A stretch of DNA of 64,000 bases from Oscillospiraceae bacterium (GTDB lineage Bacteria > Bacillota > Clostridia > Oscillospirales > Oscillospiraceae). Within the stretch, counting starts at the first letter, position 1. Every line of letters begins with the position of its first letter. The stretch lies in assembly GCA_017416245.1 (NCBI GenBank), contig JAFQCX010000037.1:1-64000 (forward strand), read 5' to 3'. The notes under the pieces are model-generated. The model ran no database searches, had not been told where the DNA came from, and saw nothing but the letters and a program-made list of their open reading frames with translations. Positions 22,958 to 43,564 of this stretch are shown piece by piece. The translations under genes and the position numbers were made by a program.

Positions 22958-23012
22958 ATATGCGTTCCTTTCTGTAAGATTTTTTGGTAAAGTCTTGCAT
23001 ATAGATGTTTGA

Positions 23013-23041
23013 ATTATACCAAAAGTGGCCATAAAAAGCAA
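23013..23041 (-). promoter_or_regulatory. promoter of the surface protein gene
   Basis: Minus-strand TTGCTT (23036-23041) and TATAAT (23013-23018), 17 bp apart, about 55 bp upstream of the ATG. Confidence 0.75.
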
Positions 23042-24738: not shown

Positions 24739-24767
24739 TTGTAACGCGGGCTTAAATATGCTATAAT
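24739..24767 (+). promoter_or_regulatory. promoter of the Hdr-Flx-fumarate reductase operon
   Basis: TTGTAA (24739-24744) and TATAAT (24762-24767) with a 17-bp spacer, giving a leader of about 85 bases. No other convincing promoter or terminator is visible until after the fumarase genes, so about 11.3 kb may be one transcript. Confidence 0.75.
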
Positions 24768-24860
24768 CTAATCAAAGGATTGTGAGAATGTTTTGCACAT
24801 ATTTCAAAATCTCTTGTTTACGCAAACTCTTTTTAAACTGTGAAATGTGAGGTCTGTGCT

Positions 24861-25646
24861 ATGAAGTATAGTTATTTCCCGGGCTGCACCCTGCGAAACA
24901 AAGCAAAGAATCTGGACGATTACGCAAGAGCCTGCGCAGAAAAGCTCGGTTTCTGTCTGGAGGAGCTGACCGACTGGCAGTGCTGCGGCGGTGTGTATCC
25001 TCTGGGTGCGGACGAGATCGCCAGCAAGCTGCCCTCTGTCCGGGCGCTGAATGCGGCAAAAGAAAAGGGGCAAGACCTGGTGGCGGTGTGTTCCGCCTGC
25101 TACCATGTACTGAAGCGGGTCAACGACGATATGGCAAATGTATCTGACATGCAGACCCGCGCCAACAATTATATGGCGCTTTCCGAGCCCTATACGGGTG
25201 AAACCAAGGTGCTGCATTATTTGGAAGTGCTGCGGGATGTGGTGGGCTTTGACAATCTTAAAAAGCAGGTGGTCAATCCCCTGACCGGTCGGAAAATCGG
25301 CGCTTACTACGGCTGCTTGCTGCTGCGGCCCAGCTCTGTGATGGCCTTTGATGACCCTGAAAATCCCACCATTTTGGAGGATTTCATCCGGGCATTGGGC
25401 GCAGAACCTGTCGTATATCCCTACCGCAACGAGTGCTGCGGCGGTTACATATCCATCAAGGAAAAAGAGCAGGCAGGCGCGCTTTGTGAGAAAATCACCC
25501 AAAGCGCCGCCGGATACCAGGCAGATTGCCTTGTAACCGCTTGCCCCCTGTGTAAGTATAATCTGAGCAAAAACAGCGATCTTCCTATCGTCTATTTCAC
25601 AGAGCTTCTGGCAGAAGCCCTGGGCATCAAGGAGGTGCAGGAATGA
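24861..25646 (+). CDS. hdrB: heterodisulfide reductase subunit B-like protein (HdrB)
   Basis: A 261-residue CCG-domain protein. Both cysteine sets are complete: C9, C41-C42 and C77/C80 in the first half, and a second set in YYGC, NECCGG and CPLCKY. In methanogen HdrB these motifs bind two unusual non-cubane 4Fe-4S clusters that reduce the CoM-S-S-CoB disulfide. A Firmicute makes no such disulfide, so here HdrB must serve another disulfide or act as an electron outlet, most simply towards the fumarate reductase encoded downstream. The start at 24861 has GAGGT in front; a GTG seven codons earlier is less likely. The HdrC gene overlaps its end by 4 bp. Confidence 0.9.
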   Translation: MKYSYFPGCTLRNKAKNLDDYARACAEKLGFCLEELTDWQCCGGVYPLGADEIASKLPSVRALNAAKEKGQDLVAVCSACYHVLKRVNDDMANVSDMQTRANNYMALSEPYTGETKVLHYLEVLRDVVGFDNLKKQVVNPLTGRKIGAYYGCLLLRPSSVMAFDDPENPTILEDFIRALGAEPVVYPYRNECCGGYISIKEKEQAGALCEKITQSAAGYQADCLVTACPLCKYNLSKNSDLPIVYFTELLAEALGIKEVQE

Positions 25647-26020
25647 ACAAGGTTGACGAAATCAAGCAAATCAGCGGGGTAAACCCTCTGAAATGTATGA
25701 AGTGCGGCAAATGCTCCGCTTCCTGCCCGTCTTTTAACGAAATGGACATCAAGCCCCATCAGTTTGTGACCTATGTGGTAAACGATGATGTGGAGGCGCT
25801 GGCCAATTCCAAATCTGCATGGAAGTGTCTGAGCTGCTTTGCCTGTATTGAGCGCTGCCCCCGGAATGTGCAGCCCGGCAAGCTGATCGACGCTGCCCGG
25901 CAGATCCTTATCCGTCAGCGGGGGCAGGAAGGACTTTCTGCAGATGAAATCCCTGCTCTGTTGGACGAGGATATGCCCCAGCAGCTTCTGATGAGTGCAT
26001 TCAGAAAGTATCGGAGGTAA
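25643..26020 (+). CDS. hdrC: heterodisulfide reductase subunit C-like ferredoxin (HdrC)
   Basis: A 125-residue protein with two 4Fe-4S motifs, CMKCGKCSASCP and CLSCFACIERCP. The following PRNVQPGKLIDAAR is typical of HdrC. It would wire electrons from HdrA to HdrB. It overlaps HdrB by ATGA and is 3 bp from HdrA. The second-motif spacing is the usual CxxCxxCxxxCP. Confidence 0.92.
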   Translation: MNKVDEIKQISGVNPLKCMKCGKCSASCPSFNEMDIKPHQFVTYVVNDDVEALANSKSAWKCLSCFACIERCPRNVQPGKLIDAARQILIRQRGQEGLSADEIPALLDEDMPQQLLMSAFRKYRR

Positions 26021-26023
26021 CAA

Positions 26024-28012
26024 ATGCGTAGAATCGGTGTATTTGTGTGCCACTGCGGCAGCAACATTGCCGCAACAGTGGATGTGAAAAAAGTCGTGGA
26101 AATGGCTCTGCTAGAGCAGGGCGTTGTCCACGCGGAAGATTATCCCTATATGTGCAGTGAGGCGGGTCAGTCCCGCATTGCCGAGGCCATTCGGGAAAAG
26201 CAACTGGAGGGCATCGTGGTTTGCTCCTGCTCTCCCCGTATGCACGAGGCCACCTTCCGCAAGTGCGCGGAGCGAAACGGCCTGAACCCCTATCTGGTGG
26301 AAATTGCCAACATTCGTGAGCATTGCTCCTGGATCCATAAGGATATGCAGGAAGCCACGGAAAAGGCCGTCATTCTGATGCGCGCGGCTGTTGCCAAGGT
26401 GCATCTGAACGCTCCCCTGCTGGCCGGCGAAAGCGCCGTTACCAAGCGGGCGCTGGTCATCGGCGGCGGCATTGCCGGTATTCAGACTGCTCTGGACATC
26501 GCCGATGCCGGTTATCACGTGGATATCGTGGAAAAAGAGCCCTCTATCGGCGGCCGTATGAGCCAGCTGGATAAGACCTTCCCCACCCTGGACTGCTCCG
26601 CCTGTATTCTGACACCCAAAATGGTGGAGGCGGCAAGCCACGAGAACATCACCATACATACCTGGAGCGAAGTGGAAAAGGTTTCCGGCTTCGTGGGCAA
26701 CTTTACGGTGGATATCCGCAAAAAGGCCCGCTATGTGAATATGGATAAGTGTACCGGCTGCGGTATCTGTCAGGAAAAGTGCCCCTCCAAGAAGCCTCTG
26801 AACGAGTTTAACCGGGGTCTGAACAACCGCAGCGCCATCTATACGCCCTTTGCCCAGGCCATTCCCAATGTGCCTGTGATCGATGCAAGCGCCTGCATCA
26901 AGCTCAATACCGGCAAGTGCGGTATCTGCGAGAAGTTCTGTCAGGCCGGCGCTATCGACTATAAACAGCAGGACGAGATCATCACCGAGCAGTATGGCGC
27001 CATTGTGGTTGCCACCGGTTTTGATACCATCAAGCTGGATAAGTACGGTGAATACGCTTACAACGAGAGCAAGGATGTGATCACCTCTCTGGAACTGGAA
27101 CGTATTATGAATGCCGCCGGTCCTACCAAGGGTCATTTAGAGCGTCTGTCTGACGGCAAGGCTCCCAAGGAGATCGTGTTCATCCAGTGTGTGGGCAGCC
27201 GCTGCTCCGACGACCGGGGCAAGCCCTACTGCTCCAAGATCTGCTGTATGTACACCGCCAAGCACGCTATGCTGATCCGGGACAAATACCCGGATACCAA
27301 CGTGACGGTATTCTACATCGACGTCCGTACCCCCGGCAAGAACTTTGACGAGTTCTACCGCCGGGCAGTGGAGGACTACGGTGTCAACTATGTGAAGGGC
27401 CAGGTAGGCAAGGTCGCGCCCCAACCCGATGGCAGCCTGCTGGTTCACGGCGTAGATCTGCTGGAAAACAAGCAGATCCTCAAGAAAGCGGATATGGTGG
27501 TGCTGGCTACCGCCATTGAGCCCAATCCCGATGTGCGGAAGATCGCCACTATGCTCACCGCTTCCATCGATACCAACAACTTCCTGACCGAGGCCCATCC
27601 CAAGCTCCGTCCCGTGGAATCCCCCACAGCAGGCGTGTTCCTGTCCGGCGTGTGCCAGGGTCCCAAGGACATTCCCGAAACCGTAGCCCAGGCGGGCGCG
27701 GCAGCGGTGAAGGTCATCGGCTTGCTTGCCAAGGATAAGCTGAAAACCAACCCCTGCACTGCTAAGGCAGACGAGCTGCGCTGCAACGGCTGCAGCCAGT
27801 GCGCCAACGTATGTCCCTATGGTGCTATTTCTTATGAAACCAAGCAGGTCAACGACCACGGCATCCGTGAGGAACGCCGCATTGCGGTAGTCAATTCCGC
27901 TCTGTGTCAGGGTTGCGGCGCCTGTACCGTTACCTGTCCCAGCGGCGCTATGGACCTGCAGGGCTTCTCTAACAGACAAATTATCGCGGAGGTGGATGCA
28001 ATATGCCGGTAA
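26024..28012 (+). CDS. hdrA: heterodisulfide reductase subunit A-like flavoprotein (HdrA)
   Basis: A 662-residue flavin and iron-sulfur protein, the bifurcating subunit of Hdr complexes. The N-terminal CHCGSN segment, the FAD fold VIGGGIAGIQTALD (near residue 150), and GGRMSQLDKTFPTLDCSAC with the extra cluster cysteines are all as in HdrA. Ferredoxin motifs follow: CTGCGICQEKCP and CGICEKFCQAG in the middle insert, and CNGCSQCANVCP and CQGCGACTVTCP at the C terminus. Length is normal for the family. In methanogens and sulfate reducers this FAD splits an electron pair between a low-potential ferredoxin and a high-potential acceptor. The gene overlaps the FlxD gene by 10 bp, consistent with one complex. 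Confidence 0.95.
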   Translation: MRRIGVFVCHCGSNIAATVDVKKVVEMALLEQGVVHAEDYPYMCSEAGQSRIAEAIREKQLEGIVVCSCSPRMHEATFRKCAERNGLNPYLVEIANIREHCSWIHKDMQEATEKAVILMRAAVAKVHLNAPLLAGESAVTKRALVIGGGIAGIQTALDIADAGYHVDIVEKEPSIGGRMSQLDKTFPTLDCSACILTPKMVEAASHENITIHTWSEVEKVSGFVGNFTVDIRKKARYVNMDKCTGCGICQEKCPSKKPLNEFNRGLNNRSAIYTPFAQAIPNVPVIDASACIKLNTGKCGICEKFCQAGAIDYKQQDEIITEQYGAIVVATGFDTIKLDKYGEYAYNESKDVITSLELERIMNAAGPTKGHLERLSDGKAPKEIVFIQCVGSRCSDDRGKPYCSKICCMYTAKHAMLIRDKYPDTNVTVFYIDVRTPGKNFDEFYRRAVEDYGVNYVKGQVGKVAPQPDGSLLVHGVDLLENKQILKKADMVVLATAIEPNPDVRKIATMLTASIDTNNFLTEAHPKLRPVESPTAGVFLSGVCQGPKDIPETVAQAGAAAVKVIGLLAKDKLKTNPCTAKADELRCNGCSQCANVCPYGAISYETKQVNDHGIREERRIAVVNSALCQGCGACTVTCPSGAMDLQGFSNRQIIAEVDAICR

Positions 28013-28440
28013 CTGAAAATTGGAAACCCACCATCGTTGCCTTCTGCTGCAACTGGTGCAGCTACGCAGGCGCAGACCTGGCAGGCTCCAGCCGTCTGGC
28101 CTACCCTGCGGATGTAAAGATCATCAAAGTGCCCTGCTCCTGCCGGGTCAACCCTATGTTCATTCTCCGTGCCTTTGAAAAGGGCGCAGACGGTGTGATC
28201 CTCTGCGGCTGCCACCCCGGTGACTGCCACTACTCCACCGGCAACTACTATGCCCGCCGCCGAATGACCCTGCTGTTTAGCATGCTGGATTATCTGGGCG
28301 TGGAAGATGGACGCACCCGTGTGGAATGGGTATCCGCCGCGGAGGGTGTAAAGTTCTCCGAAACCATGAATAGCTTTGTAGAAAAAGTTCGCGCCCTTGG
28401 CCCGAATGTAAGATTGGGGGATCTGCGATGCAAGAATTGA
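28003..28440 (+). CDS. flxD: FlxD/MvhD-type iron-sulfur electron-transfer subunit
   Basis: A 145-residue MvhD-family protein. Conserved cysteines occur in CCNWCSYAG, CSCRVN and CGCHPGDCHY, the set that holds a 2Fe-2S cluster in MvhD. In hydrogenase-Hdr and Flx-Hdr complexes this small subunit links the electron-input module to HdrA. No hydrogenase gene is present here, so the input must be the Flx proteins encoded next. It overlaps both neighbours (10 bp and 13 bp). Confidence 0.92.
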   Translation: MPVTENWKPTIVAFCCNWCSYAGADLAGSSRLAYPADVKIIKVPCSCRVNPMFILRAFEKGADGVILCGCHPGDCHYSTGNYYARRRMTLLFSMLDYLGVEDGRTRVEWVSAAEGVKFSETMNSFVEKVRALGPNVRLGDLRCKN

Positions 28441-29372
28441 TTGTAAGAGCGAAAGAACTTCTGGCATCCGGCCAGGTTGCCCGTGTTTTAGGTTGGAAAA
28501 AGGGTGAGCACAGCTACGACCCTGAGGTTGCCTTTTTTAACGATGCCGAGAGTCTGCAGGATTTTGTATACGACGGCTTCTGCGGTGCAAACCTGAGCAA
28601 ATATATGATCGAAGCCTCCAAATTGGAGGGTAAGACCCTGGTTTTCCTGAAGCCCTGCGACAGCTACAGCTTTGTACAGCTTATGAAGGAGCATCGTGTG
28701 GATCGGGAAAAGGCTTACATCATCGGTGTGGGCTGCTGGGGCAAGCTGGATGTCCGTAAGCTGGGCGCTGAGGGCATTCTGGATGTGGAAATTGCCGGCG
28801 ATGTGCTGAAGGTTTCCTCCCTGTACGGTGACAGCGAGGTAGCTTATAAGGACGCTATGCTGGAGCGCTGCCATGTGTGCAAAGGCAAGGAGCATAAGGT
28901 ATTCGACGAAACGCTGCTGGAGTCTGCCGACACCGTGGATCTTGATCGTTTTGCCGAGGTGGAAAGAATCGAGGCTATGAGCCCCGAGGAGAAATTTGCC
29001 TACTTCCAGAGTGAGCTAAGTAAGTGCATCCGCTGCAATGCCTGCCGCAACGTCTGCCCCGCCTGCTCCTGCCGCAAGTGCGTGTTTGACAGCACTGCCT
29101 TCAACTCCGAGCAGAAGGCTAACACCACCTCCTTCGAGGAAAAGATGTTCCATATCATCCGGGCATTCCATGTGGCCGGTCGTTGTACCGACTGCGGCGA
29201 GTGCAGCCGCGTCTGCCCTCAGGGTATCCCGCTGCACCTGTTCAACCGCAAGTTCATTAAGGATATCAACCGTCTGTACGGTGAATATCAGGCTGGCGCT
29301 GATCTGGAGGAAAAGGCTCCTCTGACCAGCTTCCAAACCGACGATGCCGAACCCGGCGCAGACAGGAGGTAA
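28428..29372 (+). CDS. flxC: FlxC-like 4Fe-4S dicluster protein
   Basis: A 314-residue cytoplasmic iron-sulfur protein. The N-terminal half, with FLKPCDSYSFVQLM and IIGVGCWGK, resembles the F420-hydrogenase beta/formate dehydrogenase beta-type domain. The C-terminal half has two cluster motifs, CIRCNACRNVCPACSCRKC (with extra cysteines) and CTDCGECSRVCP. In Desulfovibrio FlxABCD-HdrABC an equivalent subunit sits between the NAD(P)H module and FlxD/HdrA; the assignment here rests on order and domain type. It is 5 bp from the next gene. Confidence 0.8.
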   Translation: MQELIVRAKELLASGQVARVLGWKKGEHSYDPEVAFFNDAESLQDFVYDGFCGANLSKYMIEASKLEGKTLVFLKPCDSYSFVQLMKEHRVDREKAYIIGVGCWGKLDVRKLGAEGILDVEIAGDVLKVSSLYGDSEVAYKDAMLERCHVCKGKEHKVFDETLLESADTVDLDRFAEVERIEAMSPEEKFAYFQSELSKCIRCNACRNVCPACSCRKCVFDSTAFNSEQKANTTSFEEKMFHIIRAFHVAGRCTDCGECSRVCPQGIPLHLFNRKFIKDINRLYGEYQAGADLEEKAPLTSFQTDDAEPGADRR

Positions 29373-29377
29373 GGTCT

Positions 29378-30403
29378 ATGTATAAGATTCAAAAGGCTGA
29401 TCTTCCCAAGCTGTACGCCTCCATTGCCGCAGAAAGCGACCTGTTTCTGCCGGTAAAGGTGGCAGATCAGACCAATTTCGGTCTGTACACCGAAACCGCC
29501 GACGTGGATATCGACACCTTGAAAACCGTGAAGTCTGCCAAGGATATTTTCTTCCCCCAGAGCGAGACCCTTTACAAGGTCCGTCGGGAAAATGACAACT
29601 TCTCCATTGATGTTGAGCAGCACCGGACATCTCCCTTTGTGGTATTCGGTATCCGTGGCTGCGATGTAAGAGCCATGACCGTTCTGGACAAGGTTTTTCT
29701 GTCCGAACCCATTGACAGCTACTATGCTGCCCGTCGGCAGATGGGCACCATCGTTTCCCTGGCCTGTGGCCGTCCCGACACCTCCTGCTTCTGCAAGGTG
29801 TTTGGCATCGACTGCGCTGAGCCCGAGGGCGATGTGGTTACCTGGCTGGTTGGGAAGGTACTGTACTGGCAGCCCAAGACCAAGAAGGGCGAAGCTCTGA
29901 CCGAAAAAGTCGCCTCCCTGCTGGAAAAGGCTGACGAGGCTATGGTGGAATCTGCCAAGAACGCTATCCGCGCCATTGTGAAAAAGCTTCCCTACGCCAA
30001 TCTGTCTTTGGAGAAGTGGGGCGCAGCCGCTGCTGACGCCAACTTTGATTCCAAGCTTTGGGAAGAAATGTATAAGCCCTGCCTGGCTTGCGGCACCTGC
30101 ACCTTTGTGTGCCCCACCTGCCAGTGCTACGACATTAAAGACTATGACACCGGAAGTAGTGTCCAGCGTTACCGTTGCTGGGACAGCTGTATGTACAGTG
30201 ATTTCACCATGATGGCTCACGGCAACAACCGCACCTCTCAAATGCAGCGCTTCCGCCAGCGCTTTATGCACAAGCTGGCTTACTTCCCCGCAAACAATCA
30301 GGGTATGTTCTCCTGCGTCGGTTGCGGCCGGTGCGTTGACAAGTGCCCCAGTCACTTGAATATCGTCAAGGTCATCAAGGCCTTTGAAAAGGAGGGTGTA
30401 TGA
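29378..30403 (+). CDS. flxB: FlxB/AsrA-like 4Fe-4S dicluster protein
   Basis: A 341-residue protein of the anaerobic sulfite reductase A/sulfhydrogenase beta type. GIRGCDVRAM in the first half is characteristic, and two C-terminal motifs, CLACGTCTFVCPTCQC and CVGCGRCVDKCPS, bind 4Fe-4S clusters. It would relay electrons between the flavin subunit FlxA and FlxC. It overlaps the FlxA start by ATGA, as the pair also does in sulfhydrogenase-type operons. It is not a sulfite reductase by itself, and no AsrC siroheme subunit is present. Confidence 0.85.
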   Translation: MYKIQKADLPKLYASIAAESDLFLPVKVADQTNFGLYTETADVDIDTLKTVKSAKDIFFPQSETLYKVRRENDNFSIDVEQHRTSPFVVFGIRGCDVRAMTVLDKVFLSEPIDSYYAARRQMGTIVSLACGRPDTSCFCKVFGIDCAEPEGDVVTWLVGKVLYWQPKTKKGEALTEKVASLLEKADEAMVESAKNAIRAIVKKLPYANLSLEKWGAAAADANFDSKLWEEMYKPCLACGTCTFVCPTCQCYDIKDYDTGSSVQRYRCWDSCMYSDFTMMAHGNNRTSQMQRFRQRFMHKLAYFPANNQGMFSCVGCGRCVDKCPSHLNIVKVIKAFEKEGV

Positions 30404-31269
30404 TGTCCGAGCCTATGCACGAATGTAAGTATAACCCCGGCTTTATGCGGGACACGCTGATCCCTCAGGTGGGTATCATCACCGATATCCGCACAGAAAC
30501 GCCGGATGTAAAAACCTTCCGGGTAGAAGCCCCCAGTGGCGGCAAGCTCTTTGAGCATATGCCCGGACAGTGCGCCATGGTGTGCGCCCCCGGCGTGGGT
30601 GAGGCAATGTTCTCCATCACCTCCTCCCCCACCAACAAGCTGTATCAGGAATTCTCCATCAAGCGCTGCGGCGTGCTCACTGAACATCTGCACTCCCTGA
30701 AGGCCGGTGATGAGATCCTGGTCAGAGGCCCTTACGGCAACAACTTCCCTGTGGAAACAGAGCTGAAGGGCAAAAACCTGTTGTTCATCGCAGGCGGCAT
30801 TGCGCTGGCGCCTTTGCGCAGCGTGATCAACTACTGTCTGGACAATCGGGAAAACTACGGTGATATCGACATCGTTTACGGCTCCCGTTCCGCTGACGAT
30901 CTGGTGCAGCGCAAGGAAATTGAAGAGGTTTGGTCCAAGATTCCCGGTGTAAATGTCCATCTGACCATCGACCGGGAGCAGGAAGGCTGGGATGGCCACG
31001 TGGGCTTTGTTCCCTCCTATCTGCAGGAGCTGGCCTTTGACACCAACCGTACCGCAATTCTCTGCGGCCCTCCCATTATGATCAAATTCTGCCTGCAGGG
31101 TCTGAAAGAGATGGGCTTTGCTATGGAACAGGTATATACCACGCTGGAACTTAGAATGAAGTGCGGCGTGGGCAAATGCGGCCGCTGCAATATCGGCACC
31201 AAGTATGTCTGCAAGGACGGCCCTGTGTTCCGCTTTGACCAGGTAGACGAACTGCCTAACGAATACTAA
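30400..31269 (+). CDS. flxA: FlxA/AsrB-like FAD/NAD(P)-binding subunit
   Basis: A 289-residue ferredoxin-NADP reductase-fold flavoprotein, as in AsrB, sulfhydrogenase gamma and dihydroorotate dehydrogenase K. The order is FAD barrel (with EAMFSITSSP), NAD(P) fold (FIAGGIALAPLRS, LCGPPIMI) and a C-terminal 2Fe-2S loop, CGVGKCGRCNIG plus VCKDG. It should oxidise NADH or NADPH and is the electron entry point of the proposed complex. The upstream overlap is 4 bp and the following gap 16 bp. Confidence 0.9.
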   Translation: MMSEPMHECKYNPGFMRDTLIPQVGIITDIRTETPDVKTFRVEAPSGGKLFEHMPGQCAMVCAPGVGEAMFSITSSPTNKLYQEFSIKRCGVLTEHLHSLKAGDEILVRGPYGNNFPVETELKGKNLLFIAGGIALAPLRSVINYCLDNRENYGDIDIVYGSRSADDLVQRKEIEEVWSKIPGVNVHLTIDREQEGWDGHVGFVPSYLQELAFDTNRTAILCGPPIMIKFCLQGLKEMGFAMEQVYTTLELRMKCGVGKCGRCNIGTKYVCKDGPVFRFDQVDELPNEY

Positions 31270-31285
31270 GGAGGACAATACCGAA

Positions 31286-31963
31286 ATGGAAAACAATATG
31301 GTAAATGTCTATTTTTACGGTAAAAAATATTCTGTTCCCGGCGATCTGACCATTATGACCGCTATGGAATATGCAGGCTACACCCTGACCCGTGGCTGCG
31401 GCTGCCGCCACGGCTTCTGCGGCGCTTGCGCTACTATCTACCGTATCAAGGGAAAGAACGAGCTGAAGACCTGCCTGGCTTGCCAGACACAGGTGCAGGA
31501 AGGTATGTATGTGGCTTCCATCCCCTTCTTCCCCACAGATAAGCGTACATACGACATCAACGAGATCAAGGCCGATCAGCGGGTGATGATGGAGCTGTAT
31601 CCTGAGATCTATGCCTGCATCGGCTGCAATGCCTGCACCAAGGCCTGTACCCAGAGTCTGAATGTTATGCAGTACATTGCCTATGCCCAACGGGGCGAGC
31701 TGGAAAAGTGCGCTGAGGAGTCCTTTGACTGCGTAGGCTGCGGCTGCTGCTCTGTTCGCTGCCCTGCCGGAATCAGCCATCCCATGGTGGGTCTGCTGGC
31801 AAGACGCCTTACCGGCAAGTACATTGCTCCCAAGTCTGAGCATTTGCAGACCAGAGTGGACGAGATCAACTCCGGCGCTTACGACGAACTGATTGAAGCG
31901 ATCATGCAAAAGCCCATTACCGAAATGCAAGAGCTTTACAATCACCGGGATATCGAGAAGTAA
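31286..31963 (+). CDS. fumarate reductase iron-sulfur subunit (TfrB N-terminal-like)
   Basis: A 225-residue protein with an N-terminal plant-type 2Fe-2S domain (CGCRHGFCGAC, then KTCLAC) and two 4Fe-4S motifs, CIGCNACTKACTQ and CVGCGCCSVRCPAG. This matches the iron-sulfur subunit of thiol:fumarate reductase of methanogens (TfrB) and, more distantly, SdhB/FrdB. TfrB is about twice as long because it continues into an HdrB-like CCG domain; that half is absent here, and a free HdrB is encoded seven genes upstream. There is no membrane-anchor gene and no quinone-binding subunit nearby. It is probably the wire between HdrC/HdrB and the fumarate-reducing flavoprotein. Confidence 0.88.
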   Translation: MENNMVNVYFYGKKYSVPGDLTIMTAMEYAGYTLTRGCGCRHGFCGACATIYRIKGKNELKTCLACQTQVQEGMYVASIPFFPTDKRTYDINEIKADQRVMMELYPEIYACIGCNACTKACTQSLNVMQYIAYAQRGELEKCAEESFDCVGCGCCSVRCPAGISHPMVGLLARRLTGKYIAPKSEHLQTRVDEINSGAYDELIEAIMQKPITEMQELYNHRDIEK

Positions 31964-31975
31964 GGAGGGGACGAG

Positions 31976-33574
31976 ATGTTTACAGAATCTATGCTGGAAT
32001 CCATCAAGAAGGTGGAAGCTACCCGTGCAGAAAGAATGGGCACGGAACCCCGCAGAATGACTGCTGAGGAAAAGAGTGAGCTGCTGAAAGCTTATCACCC
32101 CGACTACCGTCCCGAAGGCTTTAAGGAAATTCAGATCGGCCCTAACAAGGGTCAGAAGGCTCCCGTGGAGCTGGCAGATCTGCTCCACTCCAACAGCCGC
32201 CTGCTGAACGAAAATATTGACCTGTCCAAGATCGACTATGATGTGGATGTGCTGGTCATCGGCGGCGGTGGCGCAGGTTCTTCCGCAGCCATCGAGGCTC
32301 ACGAAGCCGGCGCAAATGTTATGGTTGTTACCAAGCTGCGAATCGGCGATGCCAACACTATGATGGCTGAAGGCGGTATTCAGGCTGCGGACAAGGAGAA
32401 CGACTCTCCCGTACAGCACTATCTGGACGCATTCGGCGGCGGTCACTTTGCTGCCCGTCCCGAACTGCTGCGCCGTCTGGTTATGGAAGCCCCGGATGCT
32501 ATCCGCTGGCTCAACGACCTGGGCGTTATGTTCGACAAGGACGAGGACGGCCGTATGGTAACCACCCACGGCGGCGGTACTTCCCGCAAGCGTATGCACG
32601 CCTGCAAGGACTACTCCGGCGCAGAAATTATGCGTACCGTTCGGGATGAGGTGCTCAACCGCAAGATCCCCGTAGTGGAGTTTACCTCCGCTGTGGAGCT
32701 GATCAAGGACGATAAGGGCCAGGTAGCTGGCGCTGTTCTGCTGAATATGGAAACCGGCGATTATATGGTAGCCCGCGCCAAGACCGTTATCATCGCCACC
32801 GGCGGCGCAGGACGGCTTCACTATCAGAATTTCCCCACTTCCAATCACTACGGCGCTACCGCAGACGGCCTGATCCTGGGCTACCGCGCCGGCGCGCCTC
32901 TGCTGTACCAGGATACCATTCAGTATCACCCCACCGGCGTGGCATACCCCAGCCAGATCTTTGGCGCGCTGGTCACAGAGAAGGTCCGTTCCATCGGCGC
33001 TATGCTGGTGAATAAGGACGGCGAAGCTTATGCCCATCCTTTGGAAACAAGAGATGTTTCCGCATCTGCCATCATCCGCGAATGCGCCAATGGCAAGGGC
33101 GTGGACACCCCTCTGGGCAGCGGTGTTTGGCTGGATACGCCTATGATCGAGCTGCTCCACGGTGAGGGCACCATCGAAAAAAGAATTCCTGCAATGCTGC
33201 GTATGTACTTAAACTACGGCATTGATATGCGAAAAGTCCCGATCCTGGTCTACCCCACCCTCCACTATCAGAACGGCGGTCTGGAGATCGGCGGCGATGG
33301 CTTCACCAAGGCCATCCCCAACCTGCTGGTTGCCGGCGAAGCCGTTGGCGGCATCCACGGACGTAACCGTTTGATGGGTAACAGTCTGCTGGATATCATC
33401 GTTTTTGGCCGTAATGCCGGCAAGGCTGCTGCTGCGAAAGCCAAGGAAGTGAAGCTGGGTGAAATGAATTTGGATCACATAACTGCCTATACTGAAGAAC
33501 TGAAGAAGGCCGGTATCCGGCAGGAGGGTGTTTCTCCTCTGCTGCTTCCCAAATATGCCCGCCACGAGAGATAA
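31976..33574 (+). CDS. fumarate reductase/succinate dehydrogenase-type flavoprotein subunit
   Basis: A 532-residue flavoprotein of the FrdA/SdhA/TfrA/NadB family. The FAD fold is DVLVIGGGGAGSSAAIEA (about residues 85-105), preceded by an unusual N-terminal stretch of about 80 residues. HGGGTSRKR and QYHPTG are the family's dicarboxylate-site and FAD-binding landmarks, and EAVGGIHGRNRLMGNSL closes the flavin site. The long C-terminal helical domain of E. coli FrdA is shortened. The expected reaction is fumarate to succinate in the cytoplasm. It follows the iron-sulfur subunit by 12 bp and precedes a transporter and a fumarase. L-aspartate oxidase is less likely because nadA/nadC are absent. 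Confidence 0.9.
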   Translation: MFTESMLESIKKVEATRAERMGTEPRRMTAEEKSELLKAYHPDYRPEGFKEIQIGPNKGQKAPVELADLLHSNSRLLNENIDLSKIDYDVDVLVIGGGGAGSSAAIEAHEAGANVMVVTKLRIGDANTMMAEGGIQAADKENDSPVQHYLDAFGGGHFAARPELLRRLVMEAPDAIRWLNDLGVMFDKDEDGRMVTTHGGGTSRKRMHACKDYSGAEIMRTVRDEVLNRKIPVVEFTSAVELIKDDKGQVAGAVLLNMETGDYMVARAKTVIIATGGAGRLHYQNFPTSNHYGATADGLILGYRAGAPLLYQDTIQYHPTGVAYPSQIFGALVTEKVRSIGAMLVNKDGEAYAHPLETRDVSASAIIRECANGKGVDTPLGSGVWLDTPMIELLHGEGTIEKRIPAMLRMYLNYGIDMRKVPILVYPTLHYQNGGLEIGGDGFTKAIPNLLVAGEAVGGIHGRNRLMGNSLLDIIVFGRNAGKAAAAKAKEVKLGEMNLDHITAYTEELKKAGIRQEGVSPLLLPKYARHER

Positions 33575-33586
33575 AGAGGTGCGGTA

Positions 33587-34729
33587 ATGGAGTGGATCAA
33601 AAATTACTGGAGCAGTATTGTTACCAACGAATTGTTTATGGTTTTTGCAATCCTTGCTCTGGGCTATATCATTGGACGAATCACCGTGTGTGGTTTGAAT
33701 CTGGGCTCTGCCGGCGTTCTGCTGGTCGCTCTGGTGTTCGGCCATTTTGGCGTTACGATCCCCGATGTAGTCGGAGATATCGGCCTTGTCCTGTTTGTAA
33801 CGGCGGTAGGTCTTATTGCCGGTCCTAAGTTCTTTCGAAATTTCAAGATCAATGCCAAGTCCTATGTCTTACTGGGCGTGATCATCATTGTGGCCGGCGC
33901 TTTGACTTGCCTGGCCGGTGTTTACCTGCTGGGTGTTCCGTCCGATGTAAGCGCAGGTCTGCTGGCCGGCGCACTCACCAGCACCCCCGGTCTGGGCGCT
34001 GCCAAGGAAGCGGTTGCCACCCCCGGTAACGCCGCTGCCGGATATAGCATTGCCTATATCTTTGGCGTTGTGGGTGTTGTCCTGTTTGTGCAGATCATTC
34101 CCAAGCTGCTGAAGGTGGATATGGAGAGCGAGCGGGAAAAATTCACCTCCGCTTCCGGCGTAGAGCTTAAGAGCGAAGGGAAAAAGCTGCTGGAATTGGA
34201 CAGCATGGGCTTCTGCGCTCTGGCTATTACCGTTGTGCTGGGTATTTTCCTTGCCAAGCTGAAAATCGGCAACTTCTCTCTGGGCAGCTCCGGCGGTCCT
34301 CTGATCTTAGGCTTGATCATCGGCCATTTCGGCAAGGTAGGCCCTGTTAGCCTGAAGGTTCAAAAGTCTGTGCTGGAAGCCGTTCGGGAACTGGGTCTGG
34401 TGCTGTTCCTGTTGGGTGCCGGCGTGGAAGGTGGCGCGGGTTTCCTGCAATGCCTGGCAGAAAACGGCGGTGTTAAGCTGTTCATCGTTGGCGCGTTCAT
34501 CACCCTGATTCCTATGTTCGTAGGCTATTTCTTCGCCAGAAAGATCCTGAAGCTGGACATTCTCAATGCCCTGGGCTCTATCTGCGGCGGTATGACCAGC
34601 ACACCTGCCCTGGGCAGTCTGATCCGGGTCGCAGGCACAGACGATGTGGCCGCTGCCTATGCAGCCACCTACCCCTTTGCGCTTGTATGCGTTGTGCTGG
34701 CTTGCCAGCTGATCGGAATGATTTCGTGA
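33587..34729 (+). CDS. AspT/YidE/YbjL-type transporter without cytoplasmic RCK domain
   Basis: A 380-residue inner-membrane protein with two homologous halves of five or so helices each. Each half ends with the family hallmark: ALTSTPGLGAAKEA near residue 130 and GGMTSTPALGSL near residue 345. AspT exchanges aspartate for alanine, and relatives carry succinate or other dicarboxylates. Typical members are about 540-560 residues with TrkA-C domains between the halves; here the halves are joined by only a short charged linker (MESEREKFTSASGVELKSEG). Because it lies between fumarate reductase and fumarase genes, fumarate, malate or aspartate uptake with succinate export is the likely job. Confidence 0.85.
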   Translation: MEWIKNYWSSIVTNELFMVFAILALGYIIGRITVCGLNLGSAGVLLVALVFGHFGVTIPDVVGDIGLVLFVTAVGLIAGPKFFRNFKINAKSYVLLGVIIIVAGALTCLAGVYLLGVPSDVSAGLLAGALTSTPGLGAAKEAVATPGNAAAGYSIAYIFGVVGVVLFVQIIPKLLKVDMESEREKFTSASGVELKSEGKKLLELDSMGFCALAITVVLGIFLAKLKIGNFSLGSSGGPLILGLIIGHFGKVGPVSLKVQKSVLEAVRELGLVLFLLGAGVEGGAGFLQCLAENGGVKLFIVGAFITLIPMFVGYFFARKILKLDILNALGSICGGMTSTPALGSLIRVAGTDDVAAAYAATYPFALVCVVLACQLIGMIS

Positions 34730-34750
34730 TACATTAGGAGGAATTGATAA

Positions 34751-35593
34751 ATGCGTGAGATCCAGGTATCTGCCATCACAGATGTGGTGGAGAAGCTGTG
34801 TATTGAAGCAAATACGCACCTGCCCGGTGATGTAAAATGCGCCATTGAAACCTGCCGCGCCTGTGAGGACAGCAGCTTTGCCCAGAGCGTTTTGGATAAG
34901 ATCATTGAAAACTATCAGATTGCCGACAATGAAAACGTTCCCATCTGCCAGGATACAGGTATGGCCTGTGTATTTTTGGAGATCGGACAGGATGTCCACC
35001 TGGTGGGTGGCGATCTGCGTGAGGCTGTGGACGAGGGCGTCCGCCGGGGCTACGACAAGGGCTACCTGCGCAAGAGCGTAGTTGGCGACCCGGTTCGTCG
35101 CGGCAACACCGGCGACAACACCCCCGCTATGCTCTACACCGAGATCGTGCCCGGCGAAAATGTGAAGATCACCGTAGGCCCCAAGGGCTTTGGCAGTGAG
35201 AATATGAGCGCCATTCGGATGTTCAAGCCCTCCGCCGGTCTGCAGGGTATTAAGGATTTTATTCTGGAAACGGTGGAAACTGCCGGCCCTAACCCCTGCC
35301 CTCCTATGGTGATCGGCGTGGGCATCGGCGGCACCTTCGATAAGGCCGCCCTGCTGGCTAAGAAAGCCATTATGCGTCCTTTGGACACCCACCATCCCGA
35401 TCCTTTCTATGCAGATCTGGAAAAGGAGATGCTGGAGAAGGTCAATGGGCTGGGCATCGGCCCTCAGGGCTTCGGTGGAAAAACCACCGCTATCGGCCTG
35501 AACATTGAAACTATGCCCACCCATATTGCAGGTATGCCCTGCGCCATCAACATCAACTGCCACGTGACCCGGCATAAAACGGAGGTGCTGTAA
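34751..35593 (+). CDS. fumA: class I fumarate hydratase, alpha subunit
   Basis: A 280-residue iron-sulfur hydro-lyase alpha chain (FumA N-terminal/TtdA type). VPICQDTGM carries the first cluster cysteine, and the other expected cysteines lie in GPNPCPPM and AGMPCAINI, which fits a 4Fe-4S cluster with three protein ligands. Class I fumarases interconvert malate and fumarate and are oxygen sensitive, which suits an anaerobe. L(+)-tartrate dehydratase is a close alternative, but the fumarate reductase context favours fumarase. The partner begins directly after the stop. Confidence 0.9.
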   Translation: MREIQVSAITDVVEKLCIEANTHLPGDVKCAIETCRACEDSSFAQSVLDKIIENYQIADNENVPICQDTGMACVFLEIGQDVHLVGGDLREAVDEGVRRGYDKGYLRKSVVGDPVRRGNTGDNTPAMLYTEIVPGENVKITVGPKGFGSENMSAIRMFKPSAGLQGIKDFILETVETAGPNPCPPMVIGVGIGGTFDKAALLAKKAIMRPLDTHHPDPFYADLEKEMLEKVNGLGIGPQGFGGKTTAIGLNIETMPTHIAGMPCAININCHVTRHKTEVL

Positions 35594-36151
35594 ATGGAAA
35601 AGCATATTACTCTGCCTCTGACCGAGGAGCTTGCCAAAAGCCTGAAGGCCGGTGATATTGTCTATTTGACCGGCACGATCTATACCTCCCGGGATGCAGG
35701 TCACAAGCGGATGTGCGAAACCCTTGCCAAGGGCGAGCCCCTTCCCTTTGACCCTAAGGATGCAACCATCTATTATGTAGGCCCCACCCCCGCCAAGCCC
35801 GGACAGGTCATCGGCTCTGCCGGTCCTACCACCTCCGGCCGTATGGATGCCTATGCCCCCACCATGATGTCTGTGGGCGCAAGAGGTATGATCGGCAAGG
35901 GCGCAAGATTGCCCGAGGTAGTAGACGCTATGAAGCAGTATTCCGGTGTCTATTTCGGCGCTATCGGCGGTGCAGGCGCATTACTTGCCAAGTGCATTAA
36001 AAAGTGCGAGCTGATCGCCTATGAGGATCTGGGCGCAGAGGCTCTGCGCAAGCTTTATGTGGAGGATATGCCTCTGTTCGTCATCATCGACAGTGAGGGC
36101 AATAACCTCTACGAATCCGGCAGACAAGAATATCTTGCCGCCCGGGGCTAA
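35594..36151 (+). CDS. fumB: class I fumarate hydratase, beta subunit
   Basis: A 185-residue beta chain (FumA C-terminal/TtdB type). Landmarks are YLTGTIYTSRDAGHKRM, IGSAGPTTSGRMD and VYFGAIGGAGALLAKCIK. It completes the split, two-subunit fumarase and is probably the last gene of the redox operon. No obvious terminator follows, but a gap of 103 bp and an unrelated gene come next. Confidence 0.9.
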   Translation: MEKHITLPLTEELAKSLKAGDIVYLTGTIYTSRDAGHKRMCETLAKGEPLPFDPKDATIYYVGPTPAKPGQVIGSAGPTTSGRMDAYAPTMMSVGARGMIGKGARLPEVVDAMKQYSGVYFGAIGGAGALLAKCIKKCELIAYEDLGAEALRKLYVEDMPLFVIIDSEGNNLYESGRQEYLAARG

Positions 36152-36254
36152 GAGAAAATCGAAACTGCATTCAAGTAGGAATCATTACAGAAATTCCAAG
36201 CAATATTTCACGGAACCGACCTGTCCGCAACAACAGGAAAGGATGGTTTGTTTT

Positions 36255-37706
36255 ATGAAAGCAACCTATTGCAACCCCTTATGCGTCGAAAAAATCGGAA
36301 GCGGAAGATGGCTTGATATGCACCTGTCCAAGCAGGACATCAGCAGCTTTGCGGATTATCGTTCCATTTCTGACCCCAGTGTTATATATCACCAGGGAAA
36401 ATGGATCATGTATGCAAGCTACAGCCTTGCTCATGTCACCGAAGACTTTGTCCATTGGGAGAAAGTGGATATTGGAGTAGAGCATCTGCGCTATAGTCCT
36501 GCCGTGGTAGAGTTTCGCGGAAAGTGGTATCTAAGCGGTCACTCCATGCCCGAAATGTATGTTGCAGATTCCCCGCTCGGTCCATTTACCCACTGTGGAA
36601 ATCTCACTGATATGCACGGCAACGAAATGTCTGTTCCCGATGGTTGTTATTTTGCAGAGAATGACAGACTGTATTTTTACTGGTGCGCTGTACGGGAACC
36701 TGAGCAAAACGAAGATGTGGAGCTTATTATCGGAACCGTCGGCGCTGAATGTGACCCTGATGAGCCTTGGAAGCTGATTTCTGAGCCTGTATGGATAAAC
36801 ACCTTTACCCCGTCAAAAGAGTGGGAACGCCACGGCGAATACAACCAGAACGAGCGTATCGGTTGGACTGAAGGACAATGGATGATCAAGATAGGAAATC
36901 GCTATTACCTTCTTTATTCCGGAAGCGGAACTCAGTATTCCAGCTATGCCTGCGGAATCCTGTATTCCGACGAAGGCCCTCTTACAGGATTTCGCCGGCA
37001 GGAAAAACATGATCCGTTAACGCGTAAGAGATACGGACTTCTCCGCGGTGCAGGTCACGGAAGCATTGCAGAGGGACCTGACAAGTCTTATTGGATATTC
37101 TACACCTATTTCTTCGGTCACAATTATAAATTTGAACGCAGGATAGGTATGGATCCCCTCGGAATTGATGAAAACGGCGAGCTTTTCTGTCCTGCCCTTA
37201 CGGAAACACCCCAGTTTGCACCGGGCGTTCTGAAAAATCCGGAAAATGGCAATGATGCAGGCCTTCTGCCGCTTACATTCTTCCAGCCGGTTAACGCATC
37301 CAGCTTTGTCCCCGGCCGTGAGCCGATTTATGCAACGGATGACAGTGCGATCACCTGGTGGCAGCCTGAAGCTTCCGACAAGGAGAAAACCCTTGAAATT
37401 GACCTTGCCGCAAAAAAAGGATATCATATTGAGGCTATGCGCATTATCTGGCGTGATATCGGTATGGAAACCCTTGACGGGATCAATCCCGGAGCATTCC
37501 AGTATAAGGTTGAATATACCTCTCCTGATTCCGATGAATGGAAGATGCTCCTTGATGCATCCCGCAACGAAAAGGACTATTGCGTTGACTACCGCACATT
37601 CGAAACGGTAACAGCGCAAAAAGTTCGGCTCACTGTGCTGGGCGCACCGGAGGGAATCGAGCCCGGTGTCACAAGCTTCACGGTATTCGGAAAATGCGCC
37701 CATTAG
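36255..37706 (+). CDS. GH43-like beta-propeller glycosidase with F5/8-type domain
   Basis: A 483-residue protein. Residues 1-320 have the five-bladed propeller style of GH43/GH32-clan enzymes, with SDPSVIY (possible catalytic aspartate), the repeated DFVHWEKV blade motif, and IAEGPDKSYW whose glutamate could be the acid. Residues ~330-483 look like a discoidin/F5/8-type C domain of the kind that binds glycans (EAMRIIWRDIG, VRLTVLGAP). No signal peptide is evident. The ATG at 36255 has AAAGGA about 12 bases upstream, slightly far. It is functionally unrelated to the fumarase genes and belongs with the glycan region that follows. Confidence 0.75.
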   Translation: MKATYCNPLCVEKIGSGRWLDMHLSKQDISSFADYRSISDPSVIYHQGKWIMYASYSLAHVTEDFVHWEKVDIGVEHLRYSPAVVEFRGKWYLSGHSMPEMYVADSPLGPFTHCGNLTDMHGNEMSVPDGCYFAENDRLYFYWCAVREPEQNEDVELIIGTVGAECDPDEPWKLISEPVWINTFTPSKEWERHGEYNQNERIGWTEGQWMIKIGNRYYLLYSGSGTQYSSYACGILYSDEGPLTGFRRQEKHDPLTRKRYGLLRGAGHGSIAEGPDKSYWIFYTYFFGHNYKFERRIGMDPLGIDENGELFCPALTETPQFAPGVLKNPENGNDAGLLPLTFFQPVNASSFVPGREPIYATDDSAITWWQPEASDKEKTLEIDLAAKKGYHIEAMRIIWRDIGMETLDGINPGAFQYKVEYTSPDSDEWKMLLDASRNEKDYCVDYRTFETVTAQKVRLTVLGAPEGIEPGVTSFTVFGKCAH

Positions 37707-37762
37707 GATTCTGCTTTTAAGAATTTGCGCCATTGGTGGCAGCAAACATCTATGATTTAACG

Positions 37763-37806
37763 AAAAAGAGCTAACCGCTTTTGAACAAGTCGGTTAGCTC
37801 TTTTTA
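37763..37806. terminator. bidirectional terminator
   Basis: GAGCTAACCG / CGGTTAGCTC (37768-37777, 37791-37800) with A-rich sequence on the left and TTTTT on the right, placed between the convergent GH43-like and GH106-like genes. Confidence 0.85.
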
Positions 37807-37849
37807 TTTCCTATATAAGAATCCCTATGCGATATTCTGTCATATGTCT

Positions 37850-40258: not shown

Positions 40259-40303
40259 ATGGCACCTCCTGAAATGAAAGCACTTTTCTTTTAGATTATC
40301 CCT

Positions 40304-40332
40304 ACTTTACCACCTTCCCCAACCCATGTCAA
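40304..40332 (-). promoter_or_regulatory. promoter of the GH106-like gene
   Basis: Minus-strand TTGACA (40327-40332) and TAAAGT (40304-40309), 17 bp apart, about 45 bp upstream of the ATG. Confidence 0.75.
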
Positions 40333-40345
40333 CAAATTTTACCTT

Positions 40346-40386
40346 TAAAAAATGCTCTGCTTTTTTATAGCAGAGCATCTTTTTTA
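40346..40386 (-). terminator. terminator of the beta-propeller gene
   Basis: ATGCTCTGC / GCAGAGCAT (40352-40360, 40370-40378) flanked by A and T runs on both sides. It ends the minus-strand gene at 40409 just before the next promoter. Confidence 0.85.
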
Positions 40387-40408
40387 TGACAGGAAAATAA
40401 TGGGATCC

Positions 40409-41569
40409 TTAAATGTTTTTCAGATCAATAATGTGAACAGAGGGGGTAAATCCGTCTGTTTCGCCAAGATACAGCTTGTTGTTGTGGTAAGCGGAGGAAT
40501 GGAAATAGCAGCGGAGATTCTTGTCGTTTACCGGACCGAGGTCGATCAATCTGTCAGAGCCGGAAGCCTTTCTGTCAAATCTTACCAAGTGCATATTGGG
40601 ATATCCTGCGCCGATCCAGATAATGCCGTCATCGTCTTCTTCCATAACGGCAACTCTGCCGCTATAGGTTGCCTGACCGATACATTCAAATCGTTCTTCC
40701 TCCCAATGGAATCGGAACAGCAGGGAATTCGCCACCATACCAACATAAATCTCTCCGTCTTTTGTGACGATCCATTGGTCGATGCCCTGATTGCCGGCGA
40801 TTTTCGCGCCGATATCCCGCAGGATAACGGTATCTGTATGATAGAAACGGTCCTCATCGGGGACATATTTTGCAAGTCTTAAGGTCTTGCTGTAATAATC
40901 TACCCAGCCCAGATAGCAAATTCCGTTAGGTGCGATTACCATATTGTGGTGACCAAACTCGGAAATTCTGCCGTGATCGGTTACTTTTCCGGTGTTGATA
41001 TCCACAACAAGGAAGTGGTTGTCGGGAAGGGTGTTGATATATGCCTTGTTTCTGACAGGGTCAACCTGCATGGACTGCGAATACATAAACTGAGGCATAT
41101 CAGCATTGATCCAGCTTGTATCGGTAGCGGGATCGTAAATAACGACCTTACCACCCTTATCGTCTCTTACGCGGTTCCACTGCTCAAGATTGTCAAGGGC
41201 AAACTCGCTGTAAGAAATATCTTTGTAGCCCTGCTGTCTTTTCCGTTCCAGCATAGATTCGGGAAGCTCACTTTTCAGGTAAGAATTGAAAACAGGCAGG
41301 CCGTCCCATGTGAAGTGGCTGCATTCACCCATAATGAGCTTGCCGTCGGAAAGCACGCCCAGGGAATTATGTATTTTTACATTATAGTTTCTGTTCTTTG
41401 CCCAAGGGAAAACATCGTTGCAAATCGTGATTTCGTCAGTTTTTGTGTCAAGCCATGCCAGCGTATCGCTGCCGCCCGTCAGGCCAAGGTAAATACGGTC
41501 TCCGATTTTTCTCATAGCGGTAACTGCGGTGGCGCGTCTGCTTTGTACATATACTTCTTTCGTGTTCAT
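40409..41569 (-). CDS. beta-propeller protein of unknown function
   Basis: A 386-residue cytoplasmic protein made of repeated four-strand blades (for example DRIYLGLTGGSDTLAWLD, GEIYVGMVANSLLFRF, GIIWIGAGYPNMHLVRFD). Propellers of this kind occur in lyases for uronic acid oligosaccharides and in sugar-binding proteins, but I see no catalytic signature that decides. Start chosen at the ATG at 41569 with GGAGGA in front, 20 codons inside the longest frame. It lies 141 bp from the gene before it and is followed by a terminator. It is somewhat AT-richer than its neighbours. Confidence 0.7.
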   Translation of the reverse strand: MNTKEVYVQSRRATAVTAMRKIGDRIYLGLTGGSDTLAWLDTKTDEITICNDVFPWAKNRNYNVKIHNSLGVLSDGKLIMGECSHFTWDGLPVFNSYLKSELPESMLERKRQQGYKDISYSEFALDNLEQWNRVRDDKGGKVVIYDPATDTSWINADMPQFMYSQSMQVDPVRNKAYINTLPDNHFLVVDINTGKVTDHGRISEFGHHNMVIAPNGICYLGWVDYYSKTLRLAKYVPDEDRFYHTDTVILRDIGAKIAGNQGIDQWIVTKDGEIYVGMVANSLLFRFHWEEERFECIGQATYSGRVAVMEEDDDGIIWIGAGYPNMHLVRFDRKASGSDRLIDLGPVNDKNLRCYFHSSAYHNNKLYLGETDGFTPSVHIIDLKNI

Positions 41570-41653
41570 ATAAAATCCTCCAATTTTACTTTGGCCAAAC
41601 AATGGCGCGTGTTGTTCGCATACTACCAAATTTAATGATAAATGCTGTTAATG

Positions 41654-41686
41654 TGTTAAAATGTAAACATTTTTAATATTTTAACA
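41654..41686. promoter_or_regulatory. inverted repeat upstream of the beta-propeller gene
   Basis: TGTTAAAAT and ATTTTAACA (9-bp arms, 15-bp centre) lie about 85 bp upstream of the start at 41569. It may be an operator; no strong promoter hexamers stand out on the minus strand here. Confidence 0.4.
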
Positions 41687-41710
41687 ATTATTCATTGGGG
41701 GGTCTTGATT

Positions 41711-43549: not shown

Positions 43550-43564
43550 AGTTTATCTCCTTTT

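What the first reader, a model, noticed from the sequence alone, without database searches (positions are those of the whole stretch)
24739..36151. HdrABC-FlxABCD joined to a soluble fumarate reductase, a C4-acid transporter and a fumarase in one operon
Twelve genes with gaps of at most about 21 bp, many overlapping, follow one good promoter. Known: HdrA bifurcates electrons, and FlxABCD-HdrABC of sulfate reducers oxidises NADH. Methanogen TfrAB reduces fumarate with CoM/CoB thiols. Seen here: all these modules adjacent, with no CoM/CoB partner, no hydrogenase, no membrane anchor. Inference: a soluble NAD(P)H-driven fumarate reductase that may bifurcate (2 NADH + ferredoxin + fumarate giving reduced ferredoxin and succinate). 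I know of no described complex with this composition.
Basis: partly seen in the sequence, partly recalled or inferred. Interest (0 to 1): 0.9.

Follow-up and report, generated by a model that had tools for sequence, protein, structure and literature searches.

The report
Hdr-Flx-linked fumarate reductase operon
A twelve-gene cluster in a bacterium akin to animal-gut species, whose nine-gene core keeps its order in many of its relatives, likely encodes a soluble enzyme complex that would use NADH to turn fumarate into succinate while storing energy as reduced ferredoxin; the same idea was already in print for a heat-loving bacterium, and no test on a purified enzyme was found.

Summary
Twelve same-strand genes (24861-36151, gaps of 21 bp at most) encode HdrBCA, FlxDCBA, an SdhB/TfrB-N-like protein (FrdB), a fumarate-reductase flavoprotein (FrdA), an AspT/YidE-type carrier and a two-subunit fumarase. 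All 58 named loci long enough to judge keep the nine-gene core in order, as do 13 of 13 relatives of the window's order; four distant genomes carry the parts permuted. FrdA keeps the substrate-site residues in 126 of 126 (one T-to-S) and has Asn at the covalent-FAD His. HdrB keeps its ten CCG cysteines (88 of 88); HdrA the lysine aligned to K409 of a bifurcating HdrA (84 of 84). Best reading: a soluble NAD(P)H-driven fumarate reductase in which HdrA likely bifurcates to ferredoxin.
The novelty claim fails: the 'succinate operon' of Pseudoclostridium thermosuccinogenes (PMC7282089, citing a 2019 preprint) has this composition and the same proposal. Bifurcation is untested.

The parts
24739..24767 (+). 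sigma-70-like promoter site TTGTAA-17-TATAAT with extended TG
   Evidence: 12 such sites in the region against 7.9 +/- 3.9 in shuffles: suggestive only
24861..25646 (+). HdrB: two CCG motifs, ten predicted non-cubane cluster cysteines
   Evidence: ten Cys invariant in 88 of 88 aligned; the listed ORF begins at GTG 24840
25643..26020 (+). HdrC: two predicted [4Fe-4S] sites
   Evidence: eight Cys invariant in 81 of 81 aligned
26024..28012 (+). HdrA: FAD subunit, predicted bifurcation site
   Evidence: K413 aligns to K409 of 5odc_A and is Lys in 84 of 84
28003..28440 (+). FlxD (FlpD/MvhD delta-subunit family)
   Evidence: 183 bits
28428..29372 (+). FlxC-like Fe-S protein
   Evidence: conserved place and Cys
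29378..30403 (+). FlxB (sulfhydrogenase-beta/AsrA-like Fe-S protein)
30400..31269 (+). FlxA (FAD/NAD(P)H-binding, AsrB/sulfhydrogenase-gamma/DHODB-like; predicted NAD(P)H entry)
31286..31963 (+). FrdB: predicted [2Fe-2S] plus two [4Fe-4S] sites, SdhB/TfrB-N-like
   Evidence: C40, C45, C48, C66 and the eight 4Fe-4S Cys in 120 of 120 aligned
31976..33574 (+). FrdA: fumarate reductase flavoprotein with about 90 residues before the Rossmann fold
33587..34729 (+). AspT/YidE/YbjL-family carrier, predicted dicarboxylate (succinate) exchanger
   Evidence: place varies in relatives; substrate inferred
34751..35593 (+). fumarase class I alpha subunit
   Evidence: above curated cut-off
35594..36151 (+). 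fumarase class I beta subunit
   Evidence: above curated cut-off

Best explanation
The operon encodes what is likely one soluble complex that would oxidise NAD(P)H at FlxA, split the electron pairs at the FAD of HdrA, and send one branch to ferredoxin and the other through HdrC, HdrB and FrdB to FrdA, where fumarate is predicted to become succinate. Shown by sequence: the predicted cluster cysteines of HdrB, HdrC and FrdB, the FrdA substrate-site residues and the HdrA lysine are conserved, and the genes stay together. Inferred: NADH as donor, bifurcation (2 NADH + oxidised Fd + fumarate -> 2 NAD+ + reduced Fd + succinate, about -49 to -33 kJ/mol for a two-electron Fd at -420 to -500 mV), and direct hand-over from HdrB to FrdB, with HdrB plus FrdB acting like a split TfrB. 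Fumarase would supply fumarate from malate, the carrier would export succinate, and Rnf, where present, would turn the reduced ferredoxin into ion motive force.
Confidence: 0.62

Rival explanations
1. A soluble NADH:fumarate reductase without bifurcation: HdrABC-Flx is only a wire, and the free energy is lost or used to pull the pathway.
For: Plain NADH-fumarate is strongly downhill (-68 kJ/mol). FrdBA also occurs without any Hdr gene found beside it. The B. luti paper models an NADH-dependent fumarate reductase.
Against: HdrA keeps full length, most of its cluster cysteines and the K409-equivalent lysine in 84 of 84; a non-coupling enzyme would hardly need HdrA and so many partner subunits. 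This is indirect.
Confidence: 0.2
2. HdrB reduces a small disulfide or protein disulfide as in other Hdr complexes, and FrdBA draws its electrons from the resulting thiols, TfrAB-like, or only shares the operon.
For: All ten CCG cysteines are kept (88 of 88). HdrC-HdrB-FrdB-FrdA clusters without HdrA exist (L155, L156, L167).
Against: No DsrC found in 19 of 19 carriers. CoM/CoB belong to methanogens (recalled). FrdB lacks the HdrB-like half with which TfrB takes electrons from thiols (role recalled). Tight order conservation favours direct contact.
Confidence: 0.12
3. The complex runs backwards in the cell: succinate oxidation driven by reduced ferredoxin (confurcation), in an oxidative branch.
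For: Some distant FrdBA sit with isocitrate dehydrogenase- or citrate synthase-type genes (L134, L133).
Against: Asn instead of the covalent-FAD His in 126 of 126; fumarase and MDH-like neighbours in the Hdr-linked clade.
Confidence: 0.04

Closest known systems
'Succinate operon' of Pseudoclostridium thermosuccinogenes (PMC7282089, passages seen; preprint 10.20944/preprints201912.0288.v1 known only from its citation, not held)
   Same: Fumarate hydratase, Flx-Hdr complex, fumarate reductase and a putative succinate transporter in one operon; same bifurcation proposal
   Different: By locus tags the fumarase stands at the other end there; the gut-type loci often carry an MDH-like gene in front and the fumarase behind. 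Sequence identity to that operon was not measured.
FlxABCD-HdrABC of Desulfovibrio vulgaris (Ramos 2015; title seen as a citation, paper not held)
   Same: The same seven subunits as electron input and predicted bifurcating core
   Different: There the high-potential acceptor is thought to be a disulfide such as DsrC (recalled); here FrdBA is attached and no DsrC was found in 19 carriers
Methanogen thiol:fumarate reductase TfrAB
   Same: FrdA's best NCBIfam model is TfrA (338 bits); FrdB resembles an N-terminal part of TfrB and HdrB a C-terminal part
   Different: Below the TfrA and TfrB cut-offs; TfrB halves on separate subunits; an N-terminal extension on FrdA; HdrA and Flx present
MvhADG-HdrABC and HdrA2B2C2 bifurcating heterodisulfide reductases
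   Same: HdrA aligns over residues 3-660 to 5odc_A with the K409 equivalent kept
   Different: Donor module is FlxABCD, not hydrogenase or F420; predicted acceptor is fumarate
Quinol:fumarate reductase and 8-methylmenaquinol:fumarate reductase (SdhABE)
   Same: FrdA fold and active site; HdrB scores 140 bits to the SdhE model, under its 500 cut-off
   Different: No anchor genes in the operon, no MenD over cut-off in carriers, non-covalent FAD predicted

Membership tests
P. thermosuccinogenes-type Hdr-Flx-fumarate reductase operon | HdrABC, FlxABCD, fumarate reductase genes, fumarase and a putative carrier in one gene cluster | tested here: met
   against the description
P. thermosuccinogenes-type Hdr-Flx-fumarate reductase operon | Sequence kinship to CDQ83_RS03315-RS03365 | not tested
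FlxABCD-HdrABC NADH dehydrogenase/heterodisulfide reductase | All seven subunits encoded together | tested here: met
FlxABCD-HdrABC NADH dehydrogenase/heterodisulfide reductase | NADH oxidation with disulfide (DsrC-type) reduction | not testable with these tools
   activity not testable; DsrC in 0 of 19 carriers
HdrA-type electron-bifurcating complex | FAD-binding HdrA with ferredoxin-type cluster sites and the flavin-site lysine | tested here: met
   role of the lysine is recalled
HdrA-type electron-bifurcating complex | Measured coupling of ferredoxin reduction to a high-potential acceptor | not testable with these tools
   needs purified enzyme
Methanogen TfrAB | Scores over the TfrA and TfrB curated cut-offs | tested here: not met
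   TfrA 337.9 against 718; FrdB 31.5 against 385
Methanogen TfrAB | TfrB with an HdrB-like (CCG) half on the same chain as the [2Fe-2S]/[4Fe-4S] half | tested here: not met
   FrdB has no CCG domain; HdrB is separate
Fumarate reductase/SdhA flavoprotein superfamily | Substrate-site His, Thr-Glu, Arg, His, Arg | tested here: met
Membrane quinol:fumarate reductase | Membrane anchor subunits and covalent-FAD His | tested here: not met
   no membrane segment in the nine core proteins by hydropathy; Asn at the His place in 126 of 126

The most novel reading that the evidence does not exclude
FrdBA is a plug-in fumarate reductase head on which Bacillota have mounted several electron-input devices: a full bifurcating HdrABC-FlxABCD in at least three gene orders, a unit with a second, long HdrA-like protein, and HdrCB alone. 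The HdrABC-FlxABCD form is the main, energy-conserving succinate route of gut bacteria that lack a quinone chain. It would make fumarate a new high-potential acceptor for HdrA bifurcation and raise the ATP yield now assigned to succinate formation in species such as Blautia luti.
Probability: 0.45. Interest if true: 0.75.

Novelty: new member of a known kind. Interest (0 to 1): 0.5.

Why it matters
Succinate is a major gut metabolite, yet in the carriers searched no MenD scored over its cut-off (0 of 18; the futalosine route was not searched), so a quinol-linked fumarate reductase is not the obvious route. If the complex bifurcates, each succinate would also yield a reduced ferredoxin that Rnf could turn into ion motive force, and ATP balances that assume a plain NADH-dependent fumarate reductase would be too low. 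The 2026 B. luti paper (PMC12773636) makes that assumption in the passages seen, and 'hdr', 'flx' and 'heterodisulfide' do not occur in its main text. The hypothesis can be tested in cultured species.

Tried and rejected
Contig of foreign origin or mis-binned: the phylum sample gave no hit in the 14 listed other members of the window's class, but genus-mates G419, G411, G424 and, split over two contigs, G430 carry 92-96% identical FrdA, so the operon belongs to the genus.

Attribution of B. luti activity to this operon alone: rejected. The genome labelled Blautia luti MSK.16.34 holds the operon (L072), but also a second SdhA-like/SdhB-like pair near a P-type ATPase and a resolvase gene (L188). 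The paper's 'frdAB' could be either, and its strain may not be this one.

DsrC as the HdrB partner: 0 of 19, with E. coli ringing as control. LDH reading of the upstream gene: the HMM score favours LDH (335 against 220 bits), but the residue at the classic LDH/MDH position is Arg in all 50 copies where the motif could be read, of 55 hits (rule recalled), so I read it as MDH. FrdA residues 1-67 lie outside the aligned ranges of the rows listed; they were not folded or searched alone, so their fold is untested and their role unknown.

Rows dropped: residue counts use the best hit per locus covering at least 80% of the window protein, FrdA also at 50% identity or more; the tree uses every fourth named locus plus the longer unnamed ones; the structure alignment holds 43 of the 66 FrdA listed; one search scanned 5 of the 6 other flavoproteins fetched, and L189 was fetched but not used.

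Literature: the Preprints.org text and Ramos 2015 are not held. The searches listed no paper that I recognised as a biochemical test of such a complex or as a description of it in gut bacteria; I opened passages of five papers only, and this library lacks most subscription papers.

Full report
Observation. The twelve genes are real, co-directional and tightly packed, with gaps of -13 to +21 bp. Domain and family searches give HdrB, HdrC, HdrA, FlxD (FlpD/MvhD), FlxC-like, FlxB, FlxA, an SdhB/TfrB-N-like Fe-S protein (FrdB), a TfrA/FrdA-like flavoprotein (FrdA), an AspT/YidE carrier and fumarase alpha and beta. The names FlxABCD rest on family resemblance and gene order, not on a comparison with the Desulfovibrio proteins. 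The promoter-like site is present, but such sites are not clearly above chance in the region.

Conservation. Of these 80 loci, 58 have at least 7.6 kb upstream, and all 58 carry HdrB-HdrC-HdrA-FlxD-FlxC-FlxB-FlxA-FrdB-FrdA in that order. The other 22 are too short to judge, and none shows core genes out of order. Fumarase A and B follow in 58 of 67 loci with enough downstream sequence, the carrier in 39 of 67. Thirteen loci from the window's order (L169-L181) all carry the nine-gene core; some may be the same genomes as named loci. The window's own genus is patchy: 11 of 37 genus members searched, the window's included, have FrdA, several of them incomplete genomes.

Wider sample. In 398 genomes of the phylum, 51 match at E 1e-60 or better. 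A gap separates 40 full-length places of 54% identity or more (the window's among them) from matches of at most 42% that start only at residue 65-89. I fetched 32 of the 40; besides the window, G205, G071, G276, G366, G254, G345 and G044 were not fetched at length. Of the 32: five have the full HdrABC-FlxABCD set beside FrdBA, four in a permuted order with FrdBA first and one with HdrC and HdrB swapped; seven have HdrB, HdrA-like proteins, FlxD and a distant FlxC, with no FlxA/B found, but most of these stretches end at or near HdrB, so more genes may lie beyond; three have HdrC-HdrB only; seventeen show no Hdr gene in the stretch read. Neighbours sampled among the seventeen include a malic enzyme, a malate dehydrogenase, pyruvate carboxylase-like genes (read from the translation, family recalled), FMN-binding/Fe-S and cytochrome genes, and isocitrate dehydrogenase- or citrate synthase-type genes. 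A quick tree of 66 FrdA needs 5 changes for 6 context classes, the least possible. Some deep branches are weak and several rows are long, and the label clusters partly because near-copies are included.

Electron path. FlxA is the only protein of the operon with the FNR-type NAD-binding domain. HdrA aligns end to end with HdrA 5odc_A, and K413 matches its K409, Lys in 84 of 84; the importance of that lysine is recalled. Most HdrA cysteines are kept too, a few with exceptions (C101 in 81 of 84, C67 in 72). HdrB keeps all ten cysteines of its two predicted non-cubane clusters (88 of 88), HdrC eight (81 of 81), FrdB its [2Fe-2S] and two [4Fe-4S] sets (120 of 120). FrdB lacks the HdrB-like half of methanogen TfrB, and HdrB is there as a separate subunit, so HdrB plus FrdB may work as a split TfrB. 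Direct transfer is inferred.

Physiology. An LDH/MDH-family gene lies within 5 kb upstream of hdrB, on the same strand, in 48 of 71 loci with at least 1.5 kb of room, two of them at only 36% identity; the window is not among them, and the window's genome has such a gene on another contig. Its specificity residue is Arg in 50 of 50 readable copies (55 hits), which by the recalled LDH/MDH rule means malate dehydrogenase; the family HMM alone prefers LDH. Carriers: RnfC over cut-off in 15 of 19, not in the window's 66%-complete genome; DsrC 0 of 19; MenD over cut-off 0 of 18, with weak matches in 12; ATP-type PEPCK 14 of 19, not in the window's genome. With a two-electron ferredoxin at -420 to -500 mV the bifurcating reaction would yield about -49 to -33 kJ/mol (potentials from PMC5861303 passages, the -500 mV value recalled).

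Prior art. PMC7282089 (passages) describes the same composition in P. thermosuccinogenes, names it 'succinate operon', reports about 4-fold higher expression under CO2 limitation (not significant for every subunit), and assumes fumarate reductase linked to ferredoxin reduction as 'proposed previously', citing a 2019 preprint (not held) and Ramos 2015. So the kind is already proposed. I found no enzymology of it (searches). The genome labelled Blautia luti MSK.16.34 holds the operon (L072). PMC12773636 (passages) measured viologen-linked fumarate reduction in B. luti extracts (504 mU/mg on glucose) and high frdAB transcript, but that genome also has a second SdhAB-like pair, so the activity cannot be assigned.

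Verdict. The cluster and the coupling idea hold up; the claim of a new composition does not. It is a new, widespread, gut-associated member of a proposed but unproven kind.

Noticed in passing
L155, L156, L167 (FrdA neighbourhoods): HdrC-HdrB-FrdB-FrdA clusters with no HdrA or Flx found, behind fumarase in L155 and L167: the parts of a TfrAB-like enzyme on separate chains in bacteria.
   Followed up: partly
L144, L146, L147, L153, L154, L157, L164: FrdBA behind HdrB, HdrA and a second, long HdrA-like protein (1058-1489 aa), then FlxD and a distant FlxC; no FlxA/B found in stretches that mostly end at HdrB. Possibly a different electron-input module.
   Followed up: partly
G400, G404, G410, G412, G418, G432 against G000, G419, G411, G424: The window's genus holds two versions of the operon: one 92-96% like the window's FrdA and grouped with Lachnospiraceae/Oscillospiraceae-labelled records, one of 69-72% identity grouped with other families of the order. 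This suggests horizontal transfer.
   Followed up: partly
window 31976-32240: FrdA has about 90 residues before its Rossmann fold (at least 88 in 126 of 126 aligned), with conserved HPD; residues 1-67 lie outside the aligned ranges of the listed structural matches.
   Followed up: partly
L188 (G454, Blautia luti-labelled genome): A second SdhA-like/SdhB-like pair lies near a P-type metal ATPase and a resolvase/recombinase gene, possibly mobile.
   Followed up: partly
window 18043-18819: Metallo-beta-lactamase-fold gene nearest to the subclass B3 models but below their cut-offs (174.5 against 240 bits); function unknown.
   Followed up: no
window 20021-23041: A 985-aa + strand ORF with no Pfam or NCBIfam match overlaps a 1006-aa - strand ORF (not searched) almost fully; which one is the gene is unclear.
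   Followed up: no
window 36021-45496: Downstream genes are of another kind: GH43 with an F5/8C-like stretch, GH106-like rhamnosidase, GH42-like and S9 peptidase/esterase-like proteins, possibly a polysaccharide-use cluster.
   Followed up: no
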